DNA from: a virus
Strand: one strand, 5' to 3'
IMG/VR virus record: IMGVR_UViG_3300049259_000398
Location: 1 to 36,742 of that record
DNA: 36,742 nucleotides
The number at the start of each line of letters is the position of its first letter. The stretch's first letter is position 1. The notes under the pieces are model-generated. The model searched no databases and was not told the origin of the DNA. It saw nothing but the letters and a program-made list of their open reading frames with translations. The translations under genes were made by a program, and so were the position numbers. Shown piece after piece: positions 2,128 to 36,742 of the stretch.

Positions 2128-4134
2128 ATGGCTGCAACCGGCAAACGCCAGAGTATGAAACGCCCCAAAAAAGAAGGCGGTTCCAATCGCACGCCTCAAT
2201 TGCAGGCAAAGGCGAATTCCGGATCGGCCTCAAGCAACCCACCTGATCATAAGACTGCTAATTCGGCCGCATCGGCAAACAATCCCAAAGTCCTCAAGCT
2301 CTCTCTCAAAGACTTTGTTGAACAGGCATGGGGCATCCTTGAGCCTGTCAGTACTCTCGTCTGGAGTTGGCATCTTGATCTCATCTGTGAATACCTCACG
2401 CTGATCAGGGATGAGAAGTTCAAAGATGTTTGCGGCGATCTTGAAGGTATCATCTTCAATGTTCCTCCCCGGACAATGAAGAGCCTGCTGATCTCTGTCT
2501 TTTTTCCCATTTGGGTTTGGACCACCAGGCCATCCTGCCGGTTTATGTTCGTTTCATACTCTGAGAAGCTCAGCACGCACCACAGCGTTTTTCGTCGCAG
2601 CATCATTGAGTCAGAGTGGTACCAGAAACGGTGGGGCAAGATTTTCTCGCTGTCGCATGACCAGAACGTCAAAAGTCACTATGGAAATTCCGCTCGCGGC
2701 ACCATGTTCTCCACCGGCATGCAGGCCACAGCCACGGGCATGGGTGGTGACGTTTTGATCTTTGACGATCCTCTCAACCCGGAGCAGGCCATCAGCCAGG
2801 TGGAAAGGGAAGCCGTGAACCTGCGATTTGATACAACTTTTCGCAGCCGTATCAATGATCCTGCAACCGGAGTAAAGATCATTATTATGCAGCGCCTGCA
2901 TGAGCTTGATCTCACTGGACACGTCCTGGCTCGTGAAAGTAGTCGATGGAAGCATGTCAGTCTGCCGGCGGTTGCTCCAAAAGATGAAGCTTGGGAATTT
3001 CCGCGGTCTAAGAAAATTGAAAATCAAAAATCCGGCGACTTGCTCTGGCCCGCGCGTCTGCCGCAATCTTTTCTGGATAGCCAGCGCGTCGGCATGGGGA
3101 ACTGGGCGTTCAACGGACAATACCAGCAAACGCCCGCCCCGCTCGATGGCGGCATCATCAAGCGCCAATGGGTGCGTTTTTATCGCCAGCTGCCGGAGAA
3201 ATTTGAGTTCATGGTCCAATCCTGGGACTGTACCTTCAGCGGCGGCAGTGATAATGACTTCGTTGCGGGGCAAGTTTGGGGGCGCTCCGGCGGAAAATAT
3301 TTCATGCTGCCGTACCGCACGTATGACCGGCTTGATTTCGGCCCCACCATGGCCGCTATCAAGGCCTGCCATGCTAAGTTCCCCCAGGCCCATGCCGTGC
3401 TGATTGAAGATAAGGCCAACGGCCCGGCCATCATCAGTGAATTGCAGAAAGAAATTCCTGGCGTCGTACCCGTAAATCCTGAAGGCGGCAAGCTCGCTCG
3501 CGCTCAGGCCACCGCGCCTCTCTGGGAAGCAGGCAGCATTGAACTTCCTGATCCGCAGGTTTTCGGCTGTGCTTGGATTGAAGACTATCTGCACAATATA
3601 TGTACGTTTCCCAAGGCCGCGCACGATGATGACGTCGATGCTACTTCGCAGGCTCTCATCTATATGCGCAACCGCCTCGGCGGCGGCATTGTCGAGTTCT
3701 ATCGCCAGCAGGCAACCGGAGAGCTTGCGCTCGGACAAACCATCAAGCCGTTTGAACTCGGGTCAAAAAGTGGTCGTGGACCGCAGGCGCCCCCGCCTGC
3801 GGGTAAACACATTTCATCTCACAATTCTGTATTGGCCCGCAATGTACTGGCTGCCGTAGCGCAGGGCAATCAGATCCAGTGCAATTTCAAACAGTACCCA
3901 GAAGTCCGCGCTGCCCTGACCGACGCTGCGGTGCGATGGAGCGCATTTGCAAACGAACCTCATGCCTTATGGGCACGCAGTGAAATTAAGCGATTGGATT
4001 TGTTGTTCTTAAATCGCAATGAGCAGGAGGCAATTTCTAGAACGACGGCCCAAGGACACGAGGTGGCGGATCAGAAACCCGCCGTCATCCCGAGTTCCGT
4101 AGATGAGGGCGCGCTTTCTTCAGCGCCCGAATAG
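2128..4134 (+). CDS. terL: Phage terminase, large subunit
   Basis: ATPase-nuclease motor that packages phage DNA into procapsids. The ATPase domain covers about residues 60-280: a Walker A-like PPRTMKS at 113-119 and Walker B VLIFDDP at 209-215. The RNase H-like nuclease covers about 360-515: acidic motifs SWD (D367), IEDK (E427, D428) and DDDVD (500-504). The Walker A has Met where classic P-loops carry Gly, a variation I recall from related phage terminases. Residues 520-668 form an extension beyond the nuclease with no recognised domain. GAGG at 2114-2117 serves the ATG. Unusually, the portal gene is not next but 6.5 kb downstream. Confidence 0.95.
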   Translation: MAATGKRQSMKRPKKEGGSNRTPQLQAKANSGSASSNPPDHKTANSAASANNPKVLKLSLKDFVEQAWGILEPVSTLVWSWHLDLICEYLTLIRDEKFKDVCGDLEGIIFNVPPRTMKSLLISVFFPIWVWTTRPSCRFMFVSYSEKLSTHHSVFRRSIIESEWYQKRWGKIFSLSHDQNVKSHYGNSARGTMFSTGMQATATGMGGDVLIFDDPLNPEQAISQVEREAVNLRFDTTFRSRINDPATGVKIIIMQRLHELDLTGHVLARESSRWKHVSLPAVAPKDEAWEFPRSKKIENQKSGDLLWPARLPQSFLDSQRVGMGNWAFNGQYQQTPAPLDGGIIKRQWVRFYRQLPEKFEFMVQSWDCTFSGGSDNDFVAGQVWGRSGGKYFMLPYRTYDRLDFGPTMAAIKACHAKFPQAHAVLIEDKANGPAIISELQKEIPGVVPVNPEGGKLARAQATAPLWEAGSIELPDPQVFGCAWIEDYLHNICTFPKAAHDDDVDATSQALIYMRNRLGGGIVEFYRQQATGELALGQTIKPFELGSKSGRGPQAPPPAGKHISSHNSVLARNVLAAVAQGNQIQCNFKQYPEVRAALTDAAVRWSAFANEPHALWARSEIKRLDLLFLNRNEQEAISRTTAQGHEVADQKPAVIPSSVDEGALSSAPE

Positions 4135-4222: not shown

Positions 4223-4933
4223 TCACGCTCCTCGGCTGAACATCCTGACCTGTTTCGCCGGATATGCGCACAGCTCCTTCACCGGACACTCATAACATTG
4301 CGGTGATTTATCCCGGCAAATTTCTTTTCCATGTTGCCGCAATAACATATGCGCCTGGGCGATCGCCTCCGCTTTACGCGGAAGCTCCGGCTTCAATGCT
4401 TCCTGCACAGATCAGTAGGCAGCGCCATAATTTTTCTGCCACCGCCCATAGCCGACGCGTGTCAGGACTCGCAAGCCGTTCCACTCCAGCGGTAGTCCGG
4501 GCGATGCTCCGCAGAACATCAGGATCTTTTCCGCGCCCGGATCGCCGATGTTAGGAAACTGCTTCAACGCTTTCTTGGCCTGCGCATAGGGCAGCTTGAC
4601 TATCTGATCCAGGTCGTCACCAAACTGGCTCATGGTGATTCGTGCAATCTCCTGCCAGCGGAAAACCCGCACCTTGGGACGCATGCCGCCCATTGTGGCC
4701 AGCGCCAGCAGGGAATCAGGATCAGCCGTGAGGATTGCTTTTGCATTCAACCCGATCTGTTTTCTCAAGCCCTCGAACACAGTGGCACGGCGATCATCGG
4801 GCAGTAGGTAGCAGGCGTTCTCCCACATCACCAGCTCAAACGGTCTCTTCGCTGGCGGCATCGTGGGTGCGCCGTAAGCACGTTTTAGAGCAGCAATAAT
4901 TTTCTTCAGCTCAGCCATTGTGCCGAAGAGCAT
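4223..4933 (-). pseudogene. Endonuclease III-like HhH-GPD protein, interrupted by TGA
   Basis: Two segments lie in the same frame: 173 residues (4933-4412) and a tail ending at 4223, separated only by one TGA at 4414-4412. The helix-hairpin-helix lies near residues 126-138. The tail carries a C-x6-C-x2-C-x5-C loop, the 4Fe-4S signature of the endonuclease III family. The TGA falls where related proteins, as I recall them, have Arg in an AAYRSV-type motif, so CGA to TGA is the simplest explanation. Two catalytic residues are also replaced: the Lys of the hairpin by Pro (about 132) and the conserved Asp by Asn (N152). It was probably a cellular DNA-repair-like gene, now broken. A sequencing error is the main alternative. 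Confidence 0.75.
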
Positions 4934-4997
4934 AACCCGGAAACGGGGGCACCGTAACCACTGATCGTTCTAGCCGAAAGCTACAAAAAGGAGTTAT

Positions 4998-5153
4998 ATG
5001 AGTGACGACGAATTCCTCGCATGTCTCGCCGCTTACCTAGGTCGGTCCACTGACGGTATCGAGCCCGAAACTCCCATTTTCACGAATGACGATGGCTCCA
5101 TTAACCGCGAAAAAACTCTCGCCCTGCCTTGCTACTGGAACTTCAAGCTTTAG
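4998..5153 (+). CDS. Small hypothetical protein (51 aa)
   Basis: An ATG at 4998 follows AAGGAG at 4988-4993, a near-ideal ribosome-binding site. The frame runs 51 codons to TAG at 5151. The protein is acidic at the start (MSDDEF) and has two Cys and several Thr and Asp; it has no membrane segment. It is divergent from the endonuclease III-like gene and converges tail-to-tail, with a 4-base overlap, on the outer-membrane protein gene. No homologue was recognised. The ribosome-binding site is the main support. Confidence 0.5.
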   Translation: MSDDEFLACLAAYLGRSTDGIEPETPIFTNDDGSINREKTLALPCYWNFKL

Positions 5154-6571
5154 AACAGGCTCGGCCTTGCAGAACTCCCCAGCAATGAGGTATTTACGTT
5201 CACGATCGTGTGTGTGCCTTCGTGTCCACCAAATGCAAACAGCAGATATACCATCGGAAAGCCCCCGGCGCGCAGGTTTATGCCGGCAGCATAGCTGTGT
5301 CTCCACGGATTGCTGCCCAGGTCCCCGCGCAGCAGAGCTACCTTGCCCTGATCGGCACGCAGCGTGACCCCCAGAGGCCAGTTGCCAATCGAATGATCGA
5401 TCCATTCTTGCAGCAGCAGCACATTCGGTGCACGGAAACGATAGTCCTGGTAACTGGGTACCGCGGGGTTGCCGTTGATGTCGGCTCCGCCCAGCGTTGG
5501 CTGAAAATAAAACGGCACCACGTTCGTGCCTGGCACAAAGGAAAGGGAAGTGGCCGCCCTCACCCCCAGCGTGCCCTGCATGCTTCGGCTCGTGGCATGT
5601 TGACAGGTTGAGTGAGCGTCCGTGGGATCAATACGGCAATCGTTCGGATCATTCGTATCTCTCGCCACATAGACATTGCGGTGATAAAACGAGATCTCCT
5701 GGCGAAGGTCAAATGTCAGCCGCTGAAATGAAAAACCTGAACCATCCGTATCGATGAACGGCTGGTACATTGCGCTGTAATCGAAGTGCAGAAGATTATT
5801 CGTAGCGGAAGGGCGCATCCTCAGGCCCATGCCCGGTTGAAAAAAGAATGGCTGGTGCGCAAGTCCCGGTGCGGTCGCTGGCGTGTACACAGCCTCAATG
5901 GAAGGCGACGGCTGGCCTGTGCTTCGCCGAATGTCCGGCAGGCGTCCGTTGAGTTCAGCAAAAAAACTCATATTGAGCTTTTGATAAACGGGCCGGATCA
6001 TGTTGCCGCCGATGATGTGCTCCGTCATCCCAAAGAAGGTCCGTCCGGCCGTTGTCGTCGTTGGGCCTTCGCCAAAGAATGTTAGCTTGTTGAGCGAAAT
6101 GGATTGGGCATAAAGGTTATAAACCGGCCGCCCGACATAAGGCTGGATATCGTCCGGGTTCACGCCGGCCGTTCCCATCTGCACGTCTGACGGTTGAATG
6201 CGGGTGTCCACAAATTTCAGGTAAAAGCCCGCGCGCCATGACGCGTTGCTCGAGCCAATCGCGTCCGCGCTCCAAGAGGTGCTCCAGTTGTCTGTGTCTT
6301 TGTGTCCCACATATGCCAGCCCGGCGCCAAAACCGTTTTGCGGCGCAATGCTTCCCACCGCAATGTGCAGTGGCTGCCCAGTAAACAGCACCTCTGCGCA
6401 GCCAACAATGTGCTTGGGACAGTTCAGCTTGAGCTTACCCAGCTCTGTCGCCGGCTCCTGCTTCTTTTCGTTCTCTACGCCGGAATTTGGGGTCGGACTG
6501 GGACTGGCAGAGGGCTGTTGTGCCCAAACGCTTCCAGCGAGCAACATGAACGCGAAAACAAATCGTCGCAC
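5150..6571 (-). CDS. Outer-membrane beta-barrel protein
   Basis: Residues 1-17 form a classic signal peptide (basic start, hydrophobic core, VWA cleavage site). A Pro/Ser-rich linker follows, then about 420 residues of alternating polar and aromatic strands ending in a terminal Phe, the pattern of Gram-negative outer-membrane barrels. It resembles BamA/TamA-type surface-antigen barrels without POTRA repeats. The GTG start abuts the stop of the Lys-rich gene with no gap, and AGGAG lies about 7 bases upstream inside that gene, so the two are co-translated. Its partner and cargo are unknown. As prophage cargo it could alter the host surface or serve as an export pore for the upstream phosphoesterase; both ideas are inference. 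Confidence 0.8.
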   Translation of the reverse strand: MRRFVFAFMLLAGSVWAQQPSASPSPTPNSGVENEKKQEPATELGKLKLNCPKHIVGCAEVLFTGQPLHIAVGSIAPQNGFGAGLAYVGHKDTDNWSTSWSADAIGSSNASWRAGFYLKFVDTRIQPSDVQMGTAGVNPDDIQPYVGRPVYNLYAQSISLNKLTFFGEGPTTTTAGRTFFGMTEHIIGGNMIRPVYQKLNMSFFAELNGRLPDIRRSTGQPSPSIEAVYTPATAPGLAHQPFFFQPGMGLRMRPSATNNLLHFDYSAMYQPFIDTDGSGFSFQRLTFDLRQEISFYHRNVYVARDTNDPNDCRIDPTDAHSTCQHATSRSMQGTLGVRAATSLSFVPGTNVVPFYFQPTLGGADINGNPAVPSYQDYRFRAPNVLLLQEWIDHSIGNWPLGVTLRADQGKVALLRGDLGSNPWRHSYAAGINLRAGGFPMVYLLFAFGGHEGTHTIVNVNTSLLGSSARPSLF

Positions 6572-6940
6572 TTACTTTCTCCTTGCTTTGCGTGACGTAC
6601 GCTTGTTTTGAGTTGATTTCTTTTTTGATTTGCTGGCAGTTTTTTTGCCGGCAGCTTTCTTTTTGGACTGCTTCTTTGTCCGAGATTTCTTTGCCGCTTT
6701 CTTGCCGTATTTATGCAGCAGCGCCGTCACTCTTTGTATGTACTCGCTCGCTTGGCGCTCCGTGTGTAGCATATTAATGTTTATGTTCGTCCGCTGTTTT
6801 TGCGGAACCATCAAATTCTCCGCATGGTGCAGGTGCAGCAACTGCGTGCGGATTAGACTCGAGATCGGCCGGTCCGGGTTATAAGCATCTTTTACATCGA
6901 ACTCAATAATGTCGACTACAGGTGCATCTTTGATCGCCAT
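6572..6940 (-). CDS. Lys-rich tailed small protein (122 aa)
   Basis: Residues 1-75 form a compact acidic-to-neutral domain. Residues 79-122 are almost entirely Lys, Arg, Ser, Thr and Ala, like a histone-type tail, suggesting polyanion binding (nucleic acid, phospholipid or LPS). It starts 3 bases after the phosphoesterase stop and ends directly at the start of the barrel gene, so it is the middle gene of a three-gene operon. No family recognised. The tail could also act as a chaperone or tether for the acidic phosphoesterase; that is speculation. Confidence 0.75.
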   Translation of the reverse strand: MAIKDAPVVDIIEFDVKDAYNPDRPISSLIRTQLLHLHHAENLMVPQKQRTNININMLHTERQASEYIQRVTALLHKYGKKAAKKSRTKKQSKKKAAGKKTASKSKKKSTQNKRTSRKARRK

Positions 6941-6943
6941 ATC

Positions 6944-8191
6944 TCAGCCTTTCATTGCCTTCGGGAAGAATACGCATTCGTTGTCCGGACGCAGTTTGTC
7001 GCCCAGCCAGTCCAGGAACGTCTCTGCCTGCTGCTCTCGCGGCGTGCCCATATCATTGCCGTTAAGGAAATGTTTGCGCACCGTCGCCGGGATTGACGCA
7101 TGCTCAAAAATCCTCTGATTCGCGGGATCTTCCGGCCCGGGAATAACCGTTCTGCGCGGAATGTAGGGTGAAACCAGCACGGCCGGCACGCGAATGCCCA
7201 GACGGTCGAAGTCGAAAGTAAGGCCGGGCACTCCGGTGGCTGCTTCGGGGGCATGGAAGCCGTCAGGTGTGCAACTCGGCGGCACCACGTGGTCATACAG
7301 TCCGCCGTGCTCGTCATAAACAATCAGTAGCGCGGTGCTCTGCCATAGCTTCGGATTTATTCGAATGCAGTCGTAAACTTTTCCGATGAAATTGTCTCCC
7401 GCCAGAACGTGATGGTCCGGATGCTGGTCCGTCGCCAGCAACTGTGTGCCGTCCAGTGCCGGATGGTCAGAGTAGTTTGGCTCCACGAAGCTGTATTGCG
7501 GCAGGTTGCCGGACTTGCAATCGGCAACAAAGTCGCTGAACACGCCAAAGAAACTCTGGTCTTTGATCAGGTTAACGATCTCCATCGTCGAACTCGGCAG
7601 ATCGTAGTAATAAAGTTTTGCGCTGTGCCCTCCCGCCGCCAGCCTCTCGTAGATCGTCGGGATCTTCGCCCGGTCAGCATCGCTGACCAGGAACATATTC
7701 ATGTCCACGTTCCCAAATGATGTCCCATAGTGAGCAAACGCGCGATTGCAAATCGTCGGCCCCGGAATTGACGAGAACCATCCGTTGAACACTGCGTACT
7801 CGGTTGCCAGCGTGGTTAAAACCGGAATTTTCTCCGGTGAAAAATACTTCATGATCGCATGCGAATCGTTGACGCTCGTGCCCTGCGTGCCATAGCTCTT
7901 CACAAAGCCTTGCATGTTGGCTGCGCGCCCTGTAGAGAACGGCACGCCACCGTAAATCTGCACGTCCACGCCTGGGAAATGATGGTCCGGATCATGGCTC
8001 AGCTGCCCGCGATAGTCCGCCGTCGCCGACACCTGCACCATATTCCCGGCGCTATCCGGATTCGTCTCATTCCCGGTCAGCCCGTTGATCTTGGGAAATT
8101 TTTTGCTCAGCCCACCCAGCATGTGGTCGAAGGAGCGGTTTTCCATCATCAGCACAACAATATGTTCCAGGTTGTCCAGTCCTTGTGACAT
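6944..8191 (-). CDS. Phospholipase C / acid phosphatase-type phosphoesterase
   Basis: Member of the phosphoesterase family that includes non-haemolytic phospholipase C and AcpA (alkaline-phosphatase superfamily). Recognisable motifs are MMENRSFDHMLG (residues 15-26, metal-binding E17/N18), GPTICNR (144-150), YDEHGG with D293, E294, H295, YDHV (D300, H301) and FEHASI (E363, H364). It would hydrolyse phosphodiester or phosphomonoester bonds, perhaps in phospholipids. At 415 aa it is a compact member and lacks the Tat or Sec signal peptide usual for secreted relatives, so it is either cytoplasmic or exported another way. First gene of the operon with the Lys-rich protein and the barrel. An AT-rich stretch upstream (8230-8245) could hold its promoter. 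Confidence 0.88.
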   Translation of the reverse strand: MSQGLDNLEHIVVLMMENRSFDHMLGGLSKKFPKINGLTGNETNPDSAGNMVQVSATADYRGQLSHDPDHHFPGVDVQIYGGVPFSTGRAANMQGFVKSYGTQGTSVNDSHAIMKYFSPEKIPVLTTLATEYAVFNGWFSSIPGPTICNRAFAHYGTSFGNVDMNMFLVSDADRAKIPTIYERLAAGGHSAKLYYYDLPSSTMEIVNLIKDQSFFGVFSDFVADCKSGNLPQYSFVEPNYSDHPALDGTQLLATDQHPDHHVLAGDNFIGKVYDCIRINPKLWQSTALLIVYDEHGGLYDHVVPPSCTPDGFHAPEAATGVPGLTFDFDRLGIRVPAVLVSPYIPRRTVIPGPEDPANQRIFEHASIPATVRKHFLNGNDMGTPREQQAETFLDWLGDKLRPDNECVFFPKAMKG

Positions 8192-8325
8192 GCAGACATC
8201 TCGCTTTCATCGAAAACGTTTCACGGCGTACCGATAATATAAATGGCAGCTTCTTTGTTTAGTGGCACAAAGGGGCGAATCGTTTCACGCATTCCATTTT
8301 CCAGCGCATGAAAGGCACGAATGGT

Positions 8326-8730
8326 TCAATTTGGTAACTGAAACGTACCACTCTCGGTCTTTTCAATTTCGCCGGCTTCCGCCATGCGGCGCAAAACTGT
8401 ATGAATGGACGACAACAGATTCACCTGTCCCACGCCGATTCCCATCTTCACCAGGTCGTCTCGGACATCGGTTGGGCTTAGCGGTGTCTGGTGTATGCGG
8501 AACAGCCGCCGGATGGCGTCAGTAAATCCCGGCTTGGCATCAATGGCAAAGCCCTCGACCAGGAGCAGCTTGTCGATCTCCTCGGGGGCGGCGCCGCACA
8601 GCTCGCCCAGGGCCTTGACCGTCTGTTTGAGTTTGCGGATCTTCTGCTCCAGGTCGTCTCGTTTTTGCAGCTGTTGCAGCAGGTCCTGCTTCGCTGCCGC
8701 GTATGCCTGCTTGTAAGTTTCGCGCGCCAT
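8326..8730 (-). CDS. Coiled-coil / winged-helix regulator (134 aa)
   Basis: Residues 1-45 are a heptad-rich coiled coil (alternating Leu, Lys and Gln). Residues about 68-131 look like a winged helix: TPLSPTDVRDDL, then a recognition-like segment and a short wing ending in GTFQLPN. This suggests a dimeric DNA-binding protein. It sits behind a good promoter overlapped by a perfect palindrome, which suggests autoregulation. No ribosome-binding site precedes the ATG and the predicted transcript starts a few bases away, so it may be translated from a leaderless message. It is transcribed away from the candidate RNA. Confidence 0.75.
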   Translation of the reverse strand: MARETYKQAYAAAKQDLLQQLQKRDDLEQKIRKLKQTVKALGELCGAAPEEIDKLLLVEGFAIDAKPGFTDAIRRLFRIHQTPLSPTDVRDDLVKMGIGVGQVNLLSSIHTVLRRMAEAGEIEKTESGTFQLPN

Positions 8731-8736
8731 AAGTGT

Positions 8737-8781
8737 GTCTAAGTCTAAGTAACGTCTAAATAATTGTCAACACTTGACAAT
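8737..8781 (-). promoter_or_regulatory. Promoter and palindromic operator of the winged-helix gene
   Basis: On the minus strand, TTGACA (8770-8765) and TAGACT (8747-8742) are spaced by 17 bases, placing initiation about 5 bases before the ATG at 8730. The -35 box lies inside a perfect inverted repeat, ATTGTCAA at 8763-8770 and TTGACAAT at 8774-8781 with a CAC centre. Three copies of GTCTAA (8737, 8743, 8754) follow. A repressor bound to the palindrome would block polymerase. The binding protein is inferred to be the gene product itself. Confidence 0.6.
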
Positions 8782-8833
8782 GTCCGATAATAAGCTGAAA
8801 TTAGAGAAAAATCGGCAAAAATGATTTTTGCTA

Positions 8834-8863
8834 TTGACTTCGGCAAGCGATCTGTCGTATAAG
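8834..8863 (+). promoter_or_regulatory. Predicted plus-strand promoter
   Basis: TTGACT at 8834-8839 and TATAAG at 8858-8863 are separated by 18 bases. Initiation would fall at about 8868-8871, exactly at the start of a hairpin. No credible gene with a ribosome-binding site follows for more than 400 bases, so the likely product is an RNA. Confidence 0.55.
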
Positions 8864-8867
8864 ATGT

Positions 8868-9096
8868 CTATGCAGGGCGGAAGTTGGTTCTGCATAGCCG
8901 GGAGCGGCGCCGGCTTAATCAAACGGCCTGCACCCTTTCCAAGGCCGGCGTACCGTTTGCGTCTGCTGCGGGAACCTCATTCTGGGCTTTTGCATGTGGC
9001 GTCATCGCCTGTCTCGGCAGGGATGCGCGCTCACATCGGGAGCAGAGCACAAGCGCCCACGTGGGTTCTTACTCCATCGCAGAATGATAGGTTCCC
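8868..9096 (+). ncRNA. Candidate structured noncoding RNA
   Basis: The 580-base stretch without a gene (8731-9311) holds this element. The predicted transcript opens with a hairpin whose 8-base arms match perfectly (CTATGCAG 8868-8875, CTGCATAG 8890-8897). AAACGG (about 8921) can pair with CCGTTT (about 8953). A long closing stem joins GGGAACCTCATTCTG at 8970-8984 to 9080-9096 with a 2-base bulge. It encloses an apical hairpin (ATGTG at about 8994 with CACAT at about 9032, inner CCTG/CAGG) and a CCCACGTGGG palindrome near 9056. The closed lower stem, asymmetric internal loop and apical stem recall 6S RNA, but I cannot assign it. No clear terminator follows. Weak open frames overlap it. Confidence 0.45.
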
Positions 9097-9211
9097 AAAA
9101 ACCGTCAAAAAGAGCCTGTAAAAAAATAAGGCAAAGTCATCGCCGTGATTGTGCGACCCAGGATTTGCAAATCAGCGGCTGAAATTAACAGCTGCAAAAG
9201 TTCAATCGCCT

Positions 9212-9241
9212 CCAAGTACCAAATACCAAGTACTCAATACC
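9212..9241 (+). repeat. ACCAA-rich interspersed repeat, copy 1
   Basis: A 30-base tract of TACCAA-type units that matches 35169-35198 at 26 of 30 positions. It lies 70 bases upstream of a gene, while the other copy lies 21 bases upstream of one. It is probably a genome-wide interspersed element. Confidence 0.7.
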
Positions 9242-9311
9242 CATAATCTAAATCTGCCGTCTCAGGCCGCCCTGCTGTTCGCCGGTCTGCGTCCGGCGCA
9301 GAGGTGTTTCC

Positions 9312-9569
9312 ATGGCACACGATCATAACGGACGTGTCGGTCCGCCGCGCTGCGAAGAATGTAACGCGCCTCTCAACTCTGACGAACGCCGGTCGGCTTC
9401 AGCTTTCGCGCGCTCGCTCTGTCTCGACTGCCACCGCGAACGCAACCCGTTCCCCATGATCAAGAGAAGAGGCCGTCCCCGTGCCGAGCTGCGTCTGAGC
9501 GCCTCCAAACTCTTACTCTTCGATACTGCTATCCCGAACTCCGACGTCGAGCCCTTGGTGAGACCGTAG
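9312..9569 (+). CDS. Small zinc-finger / AT-hook-like protein (85 aa)
   Basis: The ATG at 9312 follows AGAGGTG about 6 bases upstream. C14-x2-C17 and C37-x2-C40 form a four-Cys zinc site of the short DksA/TraR-like spacing. A basic RRGRPR stretch at residues 52-57 contains the core of an AT-hook. Together these suggest a small DNA- or polymerase-associated protein. The tail (60-85) is unremarkable. It follows the candidate RNA on the same strand and could share its promoter. Family not recognised. Confidence 0.6.
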   Translation: MAHDHNGRVGPPRCEECNAPLNSDERRSASAFARSLCLDCHRERNPFPMIKRRGRPRAELRLSASKLLLFDTAIPNSDVEPLVRP

Positions 9570-9667
9570 CGGGTGAGGGATCGGCTCCGCTGCAGCATCG
9601 CGTGAGCCAGAATAGTTTTGCGCCGCAAAAAAACATCTCTAACGAAACTATGTTCCGCGCACGAGAC

Positions 9668-9701
9668 AAGTGTCAGGGCACGAGTTTACTCGTGCCGTAA
9701 C
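9668..9701 (+). repeat. 34-bp hairpin repeat, copy 1
   Basis: Identical over 34 bases to 10343-10376; the match extends to 39 bases with one mismatch. The core is a 9-bp perfect inverted repeat (GGCACGAGT at 9677-9685, ACTCGTGCC at 9688-9696) with a 2-base centre. The two copies flank the gene at 9755-10294 in direct orientation. Confidence 0.9.
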
Positions 9702-9754
9702 ATTTCCAAAATGATTCCGGGCTTTAGCCTCTGAAAAGAATCCAGGAGATATCC

Positions 9755-10294
9755 GTGAACAAAAAAGCTTTTTACCTTGCTCTTCTCGCGCTGCTCTGCA
9801 TCACCACACTTCTCGTCTTCTCGCAAACTTCCAGCCAGTTTCCCGAGCTGGATAAAAACGGCAGGCCACTGTTGCCGCGCCCCATGCCTCACCTGGTTTA
9901 TTCCCCCACGGATCTGGCGCACAGCGGCGTTGCGATGCCTGCTTCCATCGGCGGCGCTACTCCGAGCACCAGCATCATCCGCATCGGCGACGCCACCAAG
10001 ATGACCGTCTTCGCCTCCTGCACGCAGAACTTTGACCTCGTCATGAGCATCTACATTGCGGACGATCAGGGTCAGTCGAACCCGAACTTCATCCTATATA
10101 ACAGTTACGTTATCGCCACCAACATGGCCTCTGGCGCGCAGCAGGCATACTTGGCCGCTGAACTTGCTCCCACCGTAACCAGTGGCACACTCGGCGCACC
10201 AGTACGTCTGCCGCAACTCGCGGTTTCTTTCTTCGAGAAAAATGACGTTGCCACCGCCGGCACCTGCACTGACCGCGTCATCATCGGCTACTAA
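9755..10294 (+). CDS. Secreted hypothetical protein (179 aa)
   Basis: The GTG start is served by AGGAG at 9744-9748. Residues 1-23 form a signal peptide (KK, then a Leu/Ala-rich core, ending SQT). The mature domain is beta-rich with two central-to-late cysteines (in ASCTQNF and GTCTDRV) that could form a disulphide in the periplasm, and a C-terminal IIGY. No family recognised. It is enclosed by two direct copies of a 34-bp hairpin repeat, so it may have arrived as a unit. As secreted prophage cargo it is a candidate lysogenic-conversion protein. Confidence 0.65.
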   Translation: MNKKAFYLALLALLCITTLLVFSQTSSQFPELDKNGRPLLPRPMPHLVYSPTDLAHSGVAMPASIGGATPSTSIIRIGDATKMTVFASCTQNFDLVMSIYIADDQGQSNPNFILYNSYVIATNMASGAQQAYLAAELAPTVTSGTLGAPVRLPQLAVSFFEKNDVATAGTCTDRVIIGY

Positions 10295-10675: not shown

Positions 10676-12178
10676 ATGGCTGAAACACTCAATGGCGGAA
10701 AACTTACTGCGCTCGAGCCCGGCTTTGTGGAGCGCGTCGGGCGCAAGCTGCGCAACACGCTCGACGTCTGGTTTGGTCCTGACCTGCCCATGTCGCCCAG
10801 CGCGCCCATAGGCACTCCACCGCGGACGCTCGATTACCCCGTGGGTTACAACATCAACATTCAGCCGCGCAACATGGAGCCCATCTCTTTTGAACAGATG
10901 CGCTCGCTGGCCGATTCCTTTGATCTCGTGCGTCTCTGCATTGAGACGCGCAAAGACCAGGTCAGCCGCATGCCCTGGGCATTTCGCTTGAAGACGCCGC
11001 CGGGCGCGCCAAAGCGCGCGGCCAACACCAGCAACAGCGCCATCAGCGGTGATGACGACGAAGAGAAAGATCCTCGGCTCACGCAGCTGACAAATTTTTT
11101 CTCTTATCCCGATCGCGAGCATACCTGGCAGCAGTGGGTTCGCCTGCTGCTGGAAGACCTGCTCGTCCTCGATGCTCCGGTACTGGTTCCCATCGTTTCT
11201 CAGGAAGGTGAGTTGTGGTCTACTGGCAAAGCGCTTTATGCGTTGGAAGTGATTGATGGTTCCACCATTGCGCGCAAAATTGACATTATGGGACGCACGC
11301 CTGCATCTCCGGCAATCGCGTACCAGCAGATCCTCAAAGGCTTGCCCGCGGTCGATTTCACCGCTGATCAGCTCATCTATCGTCCGCGCAATGTGCGAGC
11401 GCACAAATTTTTCGGCTTCTCGCCGGTCGAGCAGATTATTCTCACCATCAACATCGGCCTGCGCCGCCAGATTCATCTGTTGAATTATTACACTGAAGGC
11501 AACGTGCCGGAAGCCGTGGCCCAGGTGCCTAAGGAATGGTCGGCCGACCAGATCAGCGAATTTCAGGAGTGGTTTGATAGCTCGCTGGCTGGAAACTCGG
11601 CTCGCCGTCGTCGCATCACCTTCGTTCCTGAGTGCGGCAATCTCCAGTTCACGCGCGATCCCATGCTCAAGGACGCGCTGGACGAATGGATCACCCGCAT
11701 CGTCTGTTATGCCTTTGGTCTCTCACCACAGCAGTTTGTCAGCGTAATGAACCGCGCCACGGCAGAAACCAGCGTCGAGCAGGCCGCCGCGGAAGGCCTT
11801 GTTCCGATCCTCGGCTACCTCGCTGACACTATCAACTTCATCGTCACGCGTCACTTTGATTTCAACGATATCGAATTTGTCTGGGAGCAGGACCGCACCT
11901 CGAACCCGCTGGAACAGGCGAAGATCGATGACATTTACGTCCGCGCCGGAGTGCTCTCCATCGACGAAGTACGCGAAAGCCTGGGCAAGCATCCTGTCGG
12001 TATGGCCAATGCTGTGATTACCACTCGCGGCGCTTTCCCGCTCCAGATCAAGGGCGTACGTCGAGGCGCTGGATCGCCAGAAAAAGTTCAATCGAACGGT
12101 GAATCTCAACCTATCGCTGGATCTCAGCCTGTGCCCGACTCTCAACCGCTGTCATCTGAGCGGCACCGAGCGCCGTAA
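10676..12178 (+). CDS. Phage portal protein
   Basis: Forms the dodecameric ring at the unique capsid vertex through which DNA enters and leaves. The 500-residue length and body fit HK97/Mu-type portals: an N-terminal wing (SFDLVRLCIETRKDQV, near 83-98), a stem/crown segment with a RARxFGFSPVEQI-like motif near residues 240-255, and a long helix after LNYYTEGN. The C-terminal 35 residues are Ser/Pro/Gln-rich and probably disordered. It starts 2 bases after the small upstream gene and heads the contiguous structural operon that continues with protease and capsid. Confidence 0.93.
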   Translation: MAETLNGGKLTALEPGFVERVGRKLRNTLDVWFGPDLPMSPSAPIGTPPRTLDYPVGYNINIQPRNMEPISFEQMRSLADSFDLVRLCIETRKDQVSRMPWAFRLKTPPGAPKRAANTSNSAISGDDDEEKDPRLTQLTNFFSYPDREHTWQQWVRLLLEDLLVLDAPVLVPIVSQEGELWSTGKALYALEVIDGSTIARKIDIMGRTPASPAIAYQQILKGLPAVDFTADQLIYRPRNVRAHKFFGFSPVEQIILTINIGLRRQIHLLNYYTEGNVPEAVAQVPKEWSADQISEFQEWFDSSLAGNSARRRRITFVPECGNLQFTRDPMLKDALDEWITRIVCYAFGLSPQQFVSVMNRATAETSVEQAAAEGLVPILGYLADTINFIVTRHFDFNDIEFVWEQDRTSNPLEQAKIDDIYVRAGVLSIDEVRESLGKHPVGMANAVITTRGAFPLQIKGVRRGAGSPEKVQSNGESQPIAGSQPVPDSQPLSSERHRAP

Positions 12179-35782: not shown

Positions 35783-36742
35783 ATGAGACTATTGACCCCA
35801 TTACAGTTTCGTACACTTCCTTTTGAGGAAGCAGCCATGCACTGGCTGGAGATCAAGAAAATGCACAGCAAAAAGCTGCGGACGATGGAAATGTATGAAT
35901 GGTATGTCCGAAATCTGAGCAAAATGTTTGCGGACTTGCTGCTGTCTCAAATTCATATCGGCCATTTTCTGGAATACCAGCGGCAACGGCGAATGGAAGC
36001 CGGAGCGTCCTGCGTGAATCATGAGTTGAATACGCTGGCGCAGATTTTGAAAACGGCAGACTTGTGGGACCTGATTGAGAAGCACTATAAGCCGCTGCCG
36101 CTGCCCAACTGGACACCACCGAAAGTCCTGACCGCGGAAGAAGAAGAAAGGTTTTTTCGCGTGGTGGCAGGGAACCCGGATTGGAGCGTGGCCTACTGGG
36201 CGGTGTCGGTAACGAATAATACGTCGGCCATGGGAATTGAGCTGAGACATCTGCAGATGAAACATGTTTTCCTGGAGCACGAGCCACCAACAATCCATAT
36301 CCCCGATACTAAAGTGAAGAATGAATTTCGCGCGCGCGTAGTGCCGTTGAATGCAGTAGCGGCGAAACAGGTGCGCAGGATTGTGGAGCGGGCAAAACGT
36401 CTGGGAGCGTGGCGTCCCGACCATTACATTTTTCCGTATCGATTGAAGCGCGGGAGCTATGACGCAACCAAGCCAGCGTCGCCATACTTTATACGGTCGG
36501 CATTCAGGACTATGCGGAAGAAGACTGGCCTGGAATGGCTGCAGCCGCGAAACTTCCGCAATCAGATCATCACGAAACTTTTTGAATCGGGTGCGCCCGA
36601 CGAAACAATTATGTCAATCGCGGGTCACCAGTCGATCAAAATGTCGCGCTATTATTCCAGAATCCGTATAACCGCCAAAGCGGAAGCGCTCAATGCCATC
36701 TGTCCGGGGAACGTGACTATAAGAACTATTGCAGAGAAATAG
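35783..36742 (+). CDS. int: Tyrosine recombinase (integrase), altered catalytic residues
   Basis: Integrase of 319 aa: an N-terminal SAM-like DNA-binding domain (residues 12-100) and a catalytic domain (115-305). The nucleophile Y291 (RYYSRI), GH (281-282), Lys in DTKVKNEFRARVVPL and R259 are present. In box I the catalytic Arg, expected in an NTT.RG.E-type motif, is Met150 (ATG 36230; AGG would be Arg). In box II the usual His is R256 and the His after the Arg is N260. It may be weakened, inactive or a specialised variant. It is the last gene of the window, so the attachment site is not visible. Confidence 0.86.
   Translation: MRLLTPLQFRTLPFEEAAMHWLEIKKMHSKKLRTMEMYEWYVRNLSKMFADLLLSQIHIGHFLEYQRQRRMEAGASCVNHELNTLAQILKTADLWDLIEKHYKPLPLPNWTPPKVLTAEEEERFFRVVAGNPDWSVAYWAVSVTNNTSAMGIELRHLQMKHVFLEHEPPTIHIPDTKVKNEFRARVVPLNAVAAKQVRRIVERAKRLGAWRPDHYIFPYRLKRGSYDATKPASPYFIRSAFRTMRKKTGLEWLQPRNFRNQIITKLFESGAPDETIMSIAGHQSIKMSRYYSRIRITAKAEALNAICPGNVTIRTIAEK

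What the first reader, a model, noticed from the sequence alone, without database searches (positions are those of the whole stretch)
8834..9110. Candidate noncoding RNA with its own promoter and a long closing stem
A TTGACT/TATAAG promoter fires at a perfect 8-bp hairpin, then several nested pairings follow, including a 15-bp closing stem (8970-8984 with 9080-9096) around an apical hairpin. Overlapping open frames lack ribosome-binding sites. The shape of 8970-9096 recalls 6S RNA but it is not a clear match; it may be a new phage or acidobacterial RNA.
Basis: partly seen in the sequence, partly recalled or inferred. Interest (0 to 1): 0.6.

Follow-up and report, generated by a model that had tools for sequence, protein, structure and literature searches.

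The report
Phage copy of a nuclease-linked RNA
A virus of soil Acidobacteria carries a gene for a folded RNA that does not code for protein and that belongs to a seemingly undescribed RNA family; in the host chromosomes relatives of this RNA almost always sit in front of a gene for a nuclease-like protein, which the virus lacks.

Summary
The finding holds, in altered form. A + strand structured RNA (about 8868-9106) with its own conserved promoter is present in over 20 related acidobacterial phages and prophages, between terminase and portal genes. No reading frame is conserved. Across 24 aligned homologues 96.9% of the cells of a five-helix structure pair (at most 50.8% when slid), although no single pair passes a tree-aware covariation test. 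The unexpected part: the core (8896-8984) is homologous to a multi-copy chromosomal RNA in a few acidobacterial genomes (39 matches in 4 of 9 genomes searched). A model trained only on chromosomal copies finds the phage RNA, and the reverse also works. Of 28 chromosomal copies examined, 25 are followed on the same strand by a gene for an HNH_repeat (PF18780) protein with nuclease-like motifs; two are cut by contig ends, one has none. A terminator-like hairpin precedes that gene in 13 of 25. The phages carry the RNA without the gene. Best reading: an RNA partner or antidote of a nuclease-like protein, carried solo by phages. The mechanism is inferred.

The parts
8834..8863 (+). sigma70-type promoter TTGACT-18-TATAAG
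   Evidence: sequence; both hexamers kept in 23 of 23 rows with variable spacer; similar promoter placement in 12 chromosomal copies (by eye)
8868..8897 (+). P1, 5' hairpin: 8868-8878 with 8887-8897
   Evidence: 99.2% of cells paired, 6 of 11 pairs with two-sided changes; G-U pairs show that the + strand is the RNA
8900..8903 (+). P0 5' arm GGGA, pairs with UCCC 9093-9096 (closing helix; nearly invariant, so weak evidence)
   Evidence: 97.9% of cells paired, no two-sided change
8904..8931 (+). P2: 8904-8907 and 8909-8912 with 8924-8931 (C8908 bulged); most conserved element, shared with chromosomal RNAs
   Evidence: 100% of cells paired in 24 rows; GCGGCGYCGG..GGCCUGCAAC shared with chromosomal copies
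8936..8974 (+). P3: hairpin with outer and inner helix, apical loop around UACCGUUU
   Evidence: 93.3% of cells paired, 3 pairs with two-sided changes; hairpin with outer and inner helix in 7 phage and 12 chromosomal sequences
8978..9086 (+). P4: closing helix 8978-8986 with 9077-9086, variable interior
   Evidence: 95.8% of cells paired, 3 pairs with two-sided changes
8896..8984 (+). family core found by model R2, which was trained on chromosomal RNAs only
   Evidence: 46 bits, E 2.2e-9
9097..9106 (+). conserved 3' tail AAAAACCGUC; similarity drops after about 9110
   Evidence: identity 0.88 in 9086-9110, 0.37 in 9111-9135
8326..8730 (-). divergent neighbour gene, 134 aa: long helix plus probable winged helix
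   Evidence: beside the RNA in 20 phage loci; AlphaFold pLDDT 80.8, pTM 0.50; Foldseek best E 7.4e-3, winged-helix regulators among the top matches, none significant
9312..9569 (+). downstream neighbour gene, 85 aa with two CxxC motifs
   Evidence: same place in the relatives; no Pfam family at its cut-off

Best explanation
8868-9106 encodes a stand-alone structured RNA of about 240 nt, made from its own promoter. It is the phage branch of an RNA family whose chromosomal members precede, and probably partner, a protein with HNH_repeat repeats and a nuclease-like C-terminal domain. On the chromosome the order is promoter, RNA, (often) terminator, gene, which would make RNA in excess over protein, as in type III toxin-antitoxin and AbiF loci. 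The RNA most likely binds that protein and holds or directs its activity. The phage keeps only the RNA, which would act in trans on the host's protein and so shield the phage or lysogen, as a solo antidote or decoy. Shown here: RNA-level conservation, homology to chromosomal copies, gene association, terminator-like hairpins, absence of the protein gene from phage loci. Inferred: binding, nuclease activity, neutralisation, benefit to the phage.
For: Homology in both directions: phage-only model R1 finds G287 chromosomal copies (E 5.1e-5, 0.0105); chromosome-only model R2 finds 14 of 16 phage-type loci given to it (35-51 bits; misses L045 and L049). Same P2, linker and P3 layout. Of 28 chromosomal RNA loci looked at (one search gave 39 matches, 30 of them as loci, 2 of these phage-type), 25 have the HNH_repeat gene downstream on the same strand, 2 are cut by contig ends, 1 has none; leaving out the 11 loci used to train R2, 14 of 15 assessable. 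Terminator-like hairpin upstream of the gene in 13 of 25, against 6 of 1000 shuffles. Nearly invariant NExGV, PDC, ExE and IVCW..NW motifs in the protein. No such protein in 15 phage-side sources. The neighbouring genes differ between phage and chromosome while the RNA core stays, which speaks for a trans-acting RNA. Two of the genomes with the phage type (G001, G462) also hold chromosomal copies.
Against: No experiment. The nuclease reading rests on recalled motif patterns (Pfam sees only HNH_repeat; PADLOC none; PDB by sequence nothing significant). RNA-to-gene distance is long and variable (about 150-1230 nt). About half the loci lack a terminator by this scan. Genomes G003 and G658 have the protein without a detected RNA, as do L181, L190 and L193. 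G002 has the phage RNA without detected chromosomal copies (a MAG of about 3.0 Mb). The phage RNA adds P1, P0 and another P4, so binding to the same protein is not assured. In the window no + strand terminator-like site follows the RNA.
Confidence: 0.35

Rival explanations
1. Cis-regulatory leader: the RNA is the 5' UTR of the downstream gene (HNH_repeat gene on chromosomes, 85-aa gene in phages) and controls it by attenuation or ligand sensing.
For: Same strand and upstream of a gene in the phage loci and in 25 of 26 assessable chromosomal loci; terminator-like hairpins just before the gene in 13 of 25.
Against: Distance from RNA to gene is about 150-1230 nt and filled with unconserved sequence, once with a transposase-like ORF, so a direct switch between aptamer and terminator is hard. 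The downstream gene families differ between phage and chromosome. Phage spacer 9111-9260 is unconserved.
Confidence: 0.25
2. RNA component of an RNA-guided or RNA-scaffolded nuclease or of a homing element (OMEGA/HEARO-like), with the phage copy a remnant or a mimic.
For: PF18780 is named for homing endonucleases; multi-copy family (up to 19 matches in one genome); variable inserts in the P2 loop.
Against: No Rfam match at the RNA in five loci tested at E up to 1. Inserts are nearly identical in presumed orthologues L169/L175 and look structured, not guide-like (by eye). No shared element ends seen beyond RNA and ORF (not a formal test).
Confidence: 0.15
3. Unrelated phage function: a regulatory sRNA or an RNA needed for lysogeny or packaging, recruited from a host RNA but no longer acting on the host protein.
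For: The phage RNA has conserved P1, P4 and 3' tail not seen in the chromosomal cores and a linked, conserved divergent gene. It lies between terminase and portal genes.
Against: The shared core is the best-conserved part; nearby genes on the opposite strand look like morons rather than packaging genes.
Confidence: 0.2
4. 6S-type RNA that binds RNA polymerase.
For: Long hairpin and RNA length (sequence only).
Against: No Rfam 6S match at E up to 10; multi-helix architecture; the long closing stem is not conserved as drawn.
Confidence: 0.02
5. Not an RNA: a conserved DNA element or a chance fold.
For: Single pairs do not reach E < 0.05 in a tree-aware test.
Against: G-U pairs kept on the + strand and 96.9% pairing, a promoter facing the element, an unseen diverged copy found by the model (L049, E 1.7e-22).
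Confidence: 0.03

Closest known systems
AbiF/Abi_2 with ncRNA RCd22 (PMC12373285; abstract and section list seen)
   Same: A structured ncRNA linked to a protein gene, found in a prophage; that RNA is active in cis and in trans to neutralise the protein
   Different: Different RNA and protein families; here the phage carries the RNA without the protein; no function tested here
Type III toxin-antitoxin systems such as ToxIN and CptIN (PMC5086642; passages seen)
   Same: Promoter, RNA, Rho-independent terminator, protein gene on one strand (chromosomal loci)
   Different: RNA not in tandem repeats; protein not of a known type III toxin family by Pfam; long RNA-gene distance
RNA anti-CRISPRs, Racr (PMC10651486; abstract and section list seen)
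   Same: Solo phage-borne RNA that resembles an RNA of a host system
   Different: Host system here is not CRISPR; mimicry not tested
HEARO / OMEGA RNAs (search listing with start of abstract seen; details recalled)
   Same: Structured RNA beside a nuclease-like gene
   Different: No Rfam match; a different protein family
Acido-1 and Acido-Lenti-1 RNAs (PMC2864571; passages seen)
   Same: Acidobacterial orphan RNAs
   Different: No match of this RNA to them
6S RNA
   Same: Length and a long hairpin
   Different: See membership test

Membership tests
6S RNA | matches a 6S covariance model | tested here: not met
   no Rfam match at gathering threshold; none of the four matches at E up to 10 is 6S
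6S RNA | binds RNA polymerase | not testable with these tools
   -
Type III toxin-antitoxin | RNA gene upstream of the protein gene on one strand | tested here: met
   chromosomal loci, 25 of 26 assessable; not met for the phage copy, which has no such gene
Type III toxin-antitoxin | Rho-independent terminator between RNA and gene | tested here: inconclusive
   13 of 25 chromosomal loci, 6 of 1000 shuffles; none on the + strand in window 8200-9800
Type III toxin-antitoxin | antitoxin made of tandem repeats | tested here: not met
   no tandem array within 8866-9112; chromosomal copies read as single units (by eye)
Type III toxin-antitoxin | endoribonuclease toxin of a known type III family | tested here: not met
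   HNH_repeat is the only significant Pfam match, nothing in PADLOC
Type III toxin-antitoxin | protein toxic, RNA neutralises it | not testable with these tools
   -
AbiF RNA / Abi_2 | Abi_2 protein and abiF RNA motif | tested here: not met
   no Abi_2 match; no Rfam match at the RNA
HEARO / OMEGA RNA | Rfam HEARO match and IscB/TnpB-type protein | tested here: not met
   RNA; protein
RNA anti-CRISPR | mimics a CRISPR repeat | not tested
   the resemblance found is to an HNH_repeat-linked RNA; no CRISPR comparison was made
HNH_repeat-linked acidobacterial RNA (family defined here) | core P2 with GCGGCGYCGG..GGCCUGCAAC and hairpin P3, found by R2 | tested here: met
   window 8896-8984 46 bits; the one clear false positive seen scored 31.9 bits
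HNH_repeat-linked acidobacterial RNA (family defined here) | HNH_repeat gene downstream | tested here: not met
   absent in 15 phage-side sources including the window; met in 25 of 26 assessable chromosomal loci

The most novel reading that the evidence does not exclude
An undescribed RNA-plus-nuclease system of Acidobacteria, in many paralogous copies per genome, in which a dedicated structured RNA controls or arms a DNA-binding PD-(D/E)XK-like protein, and temperate phages carry a solo mimic of that RNA as an RNA-based counter-measure.
Probability: 0.25. Interest if true: 0.9.

Novelty: new variant of a known kind. Interest (0 to 1): 0.72.

Why it matters
It adds what appears to be an undescribed RNA family with a near-constant protein partner and shows the same RNA core on both sides of the phage-host divide. 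That makes a direct test possible: whether phages disarm a host RNA-protein system by carrying only its RNA. Multi-copy RNA-nuclease loci would also be a new item in acidobacterial genomes, which are poorly explored for RNA.

Tried and rejected
6S and other Rfam families: no match. Known phage and plasmid collections: only matches of 22-38 bases, taken as chance. Exact-motif scan of viral contigs: 32 stretches; the 14 outside this phage group read as chance by context. Second motif: 8 stretches, two of them outside the group (L086, L087). Chromosome-type motif in viral contigs: 0. Own tree-aware covariation test: best structure pair E 0.21, none below 0.05, so covariation is claimed only for the whole structure. 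On the chromosomal alignment A6 RNAalifold prefers another fold with little covariation; the structure I named pairs in 85.3% of cells with 9 two-sided cells against 4.8 in shuffles (20 of 500 reach it), and the number of pairs with a two-sided change is no better than shuffles (226 of 500): weak. Conformational switch between GGGAACC/GGUUCCC and P3: noted, not tested. Distant chromosomal relatives of the 134-aa gene (22 of 399 genomes, G001's prophage included) showed no R1 match in the 24 loci tested (L114-L137), so that gene is not the constant partner. Of the 17 genomes with an R1 match only G001 and G287 were followed up; five others (L140, L143, L145, L149, L152) were merely re-scored. 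The R2 match in G838 (31.9 bits) lies in coding sequence (SbcD/SbcC-like by recall) and is rejected. Dropped rows: L035 (partial) left out of A1. Against the association from the gene side: L181, L190, L193 and the genes of G003 and G658 have no detected RNA. Literature: searches returned nothing that describes this RNA or a PF18780-linked RNA; most subscription papers and all preprints outside PubMed Central are not held. The reading 'PD-(D/E)XK-like' is recalled motif knowledge and comes from no call.

Full report
What is there. The window is a virus record of an acidobacterial temperate siphophage: terminase 2128-4134, portal 10676-12178, integrase 35783-36742. The finding lies between a divergent 134-aa gene (8326-8730, -) and an 85-aa gene (9312-9569, +), in a stretch between terminase and portal that also holds opposite-strand genes such as a phosphoesterase.

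The region is a conserved element. Relatives were found through the 85-aa protein (20 loci), the portal (33 viral loci; 3 genome loci) and the 134-aa protein (18 loci); many are the same contigs. blastn shows 8736 to about 9116 conserved. Over 21 homologues mean identity is 0.82-0.93 in 8861-8985 and 0.88 in 9086-9110, but 0.18-0.39 in 9111-9260. In 20 loci the order 134-aa gene (-), RNA (+), 85-aa gene (+) is complete; in three more the contig ends before the 134-aa gene (L025, L034, L036); L049 lacks a detected 134-aa gene and has a strongly diverged RNA.

It is transcribed from the + strand and does not code. TTGAC and TGTCkTATAm are kept in 23 of 23 rows, the spacer is not. The three overlapping frames are open with a start in 4 of 23, 12 of 24 and 4 of 18 homologues. 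G-U pairs in P1 (14 and 15 of 24 rows at two positions) would be A-C mismatches on the other strand.

Structure. On a structure-blind MAFFT alignment of 24 sequences (A1; 25 were extracted, the partial L035 left out) the helices P1, P0, P2, P3 and P4 pair in 96.9% of 1045 cells, against 32-51% when slid; 13 of 44 pairs have a two-sided change, shuffles 3.9, 0 of 500 reaching it. The structure was taken from RNAalifold on the same alignment, so the slide control favours it. My tree-aware pair test finds no single pair below E 0.05: a few deep branches carry most changes. Single-sequence folds: z -3.80 for the region, -4.23 for 8868-9108, -4.56 (L047), -4.46 (L045), -2.26 (L048), -1.65 (L055). 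A covariance model R1 from A1 finds L049, which was not in it, at 72.9 bits, E 1.7e-22.

Chromosomal relatives. R1 against 399 genomes of the host's class gave one strong match, the prophage of G001 (the MAG of L054), and two in G287 (E 5.1e-5 and 0.0105); fifteen other genomes had weak matches, mostly short. Both G287 places have a promoter-like sequence of their own and are followed by proteins of one family with PF18780 HNH_repeat (E 1.3e-14 and 5.7e-18). A degenerate pattern then matched 3 of 397 genomes of the order (G001, G287, G462), reversed-pattern control 0. The protein family (A5) occurs in 8 of 387 genomes of the order, with at least six places in G001, G003, G287 and G462. Twelve RNA copies upstream of it were aligned (A6) and gave model R2.

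Homology of phage and chromosomal RNA. R2, which contains no phage sequence, finds 14 of 16 phage-type loci (window 46 bits, E 2.2e-9; L054 51.3 bits, E 1.1e-10; L045 and L049 missed) and, weakly, a second copy upstream of terminase in another phage (L093, 24.5 bits, below the one false positive). As a specificity check, 386 genomes of the phylum gave G001 and one false match of 31.9 bits in G838, inside coding sequence. The combined alignment A7 of 12 chromosomal and 9 phage-type rows shows the shared GAGCGGCGYCGG and GGCCUGCAAC segments (L045 departs most). P3 folds to a hairpin with an outer and an inner helix in 19 of 19 sequences tried, with different sequences in the stems; individual z-scores there are modest (-0.0 to -4.6).

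Association with the protein. R2 gives 39 matches in 4 of 9 genomes searched: G001 11, G287 8, G462 19, G002 1. Thirty were available as loci: two are the phage type; of 28 chromosomal ones 25 have the HNH_repeat protein downstream on the same strand, two (L203, L208) are cut by contig ends, one (L226) has none within 1.5 kb. Eleven of the 28 were in the training set of R2 and had been picked through the gene; without them it is 14 of 15 assessable. From the gene side, 15 of 18 protein loci fetched from G001, G287 and G462 have an RNA nearby (L182 partial); L181, L190, L193 do not, nor do those in G003 and G658. A terminator-like hairpin stands upstream of the gene in 13 of 25 loci, against 6 of 1000 mononucleotide shuffles; one more, in L198, was missed because the script chose a start codon inside the hairpin (by eye). 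The proteins share NExGV, PDC, ExE, NF-HxH and IVCW..NW motifs in at least 17 of 18 aligned sequences, which I read, from recall, as PD-(D/E)XK-like; no database confirms it. No such protein is found in the window or in 14 other phage-side loci.

Mechanism. The chromosomal layout equals that described for type III toxin-antitoxin loci, where a terminator parts RNA and toxin gene (PMC5086642, passages), and resembles AbiF, whose RNA acts in cis and in trans (PMC12373285, abstract). The RNA stays while the neighbouring genes differ between phage and chromosome, which speaks for a trans-acting RNA. A solo RNA on a phage whose hosts carry the matching system recalls RNA anti-CRISPRs (PMC10651486, abstract). 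In the sample of 397 genomes both genomes with the phage-type RNA are among the three with chromosomal copies (P 3.8e-5 by counting), but the genomes are related and G001 entered through the phage, so this is only suggestive. I put 0.35 on the partner/antidote reading; that the element is a real structured RNA of this new family I hold at about 0.9.

Noticed in passing
window 8764-8780 and 8736-8763: Palindrome TTGTCAA-CAC-TTGACAA and repeated GTCTAA boxes between the divergent 134-aa gene and the RNA promoter: candidate operator of that gene's product.
   Followed up: partly
L093 979-1069; G462:C21:55692-55783: A second, weakly scoring copy of the RNA core near the terminase end of two phage-type genomes (24.5 and 27.1 bits, below the one known false positive).
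   Followed up: partly
window 4412-8730: Block of opposite-strand genes between terminase and portal, including a phosphoesterase (PF04185), partly exchanged between relatives: moron-like.
   Followed up: partly
L157/L163 (G462:C1), between RNA and HNH_repeat gene: A transposase-like ORF (recalled as the REP-associated type) lies between RNA and gene.
   Followed up: no
L162 2828-2871: Acido-Lenti-1 (RF01687) match above gathering score (39.9 bits) near an HNH_repeat locus.
   Followed up: no
window 9668-9705: 18-nt inverted repeat around GGCACGAGTTTACTCGTGCC, like an extragenic palindrome.
   Followed up: no
window 9312-9569 and relatives: The 85-aa CxxC protein keeps roughly its first 48 residues, but its C-terminus varies strongly in length and sequence among relatives.
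   Followed up: no
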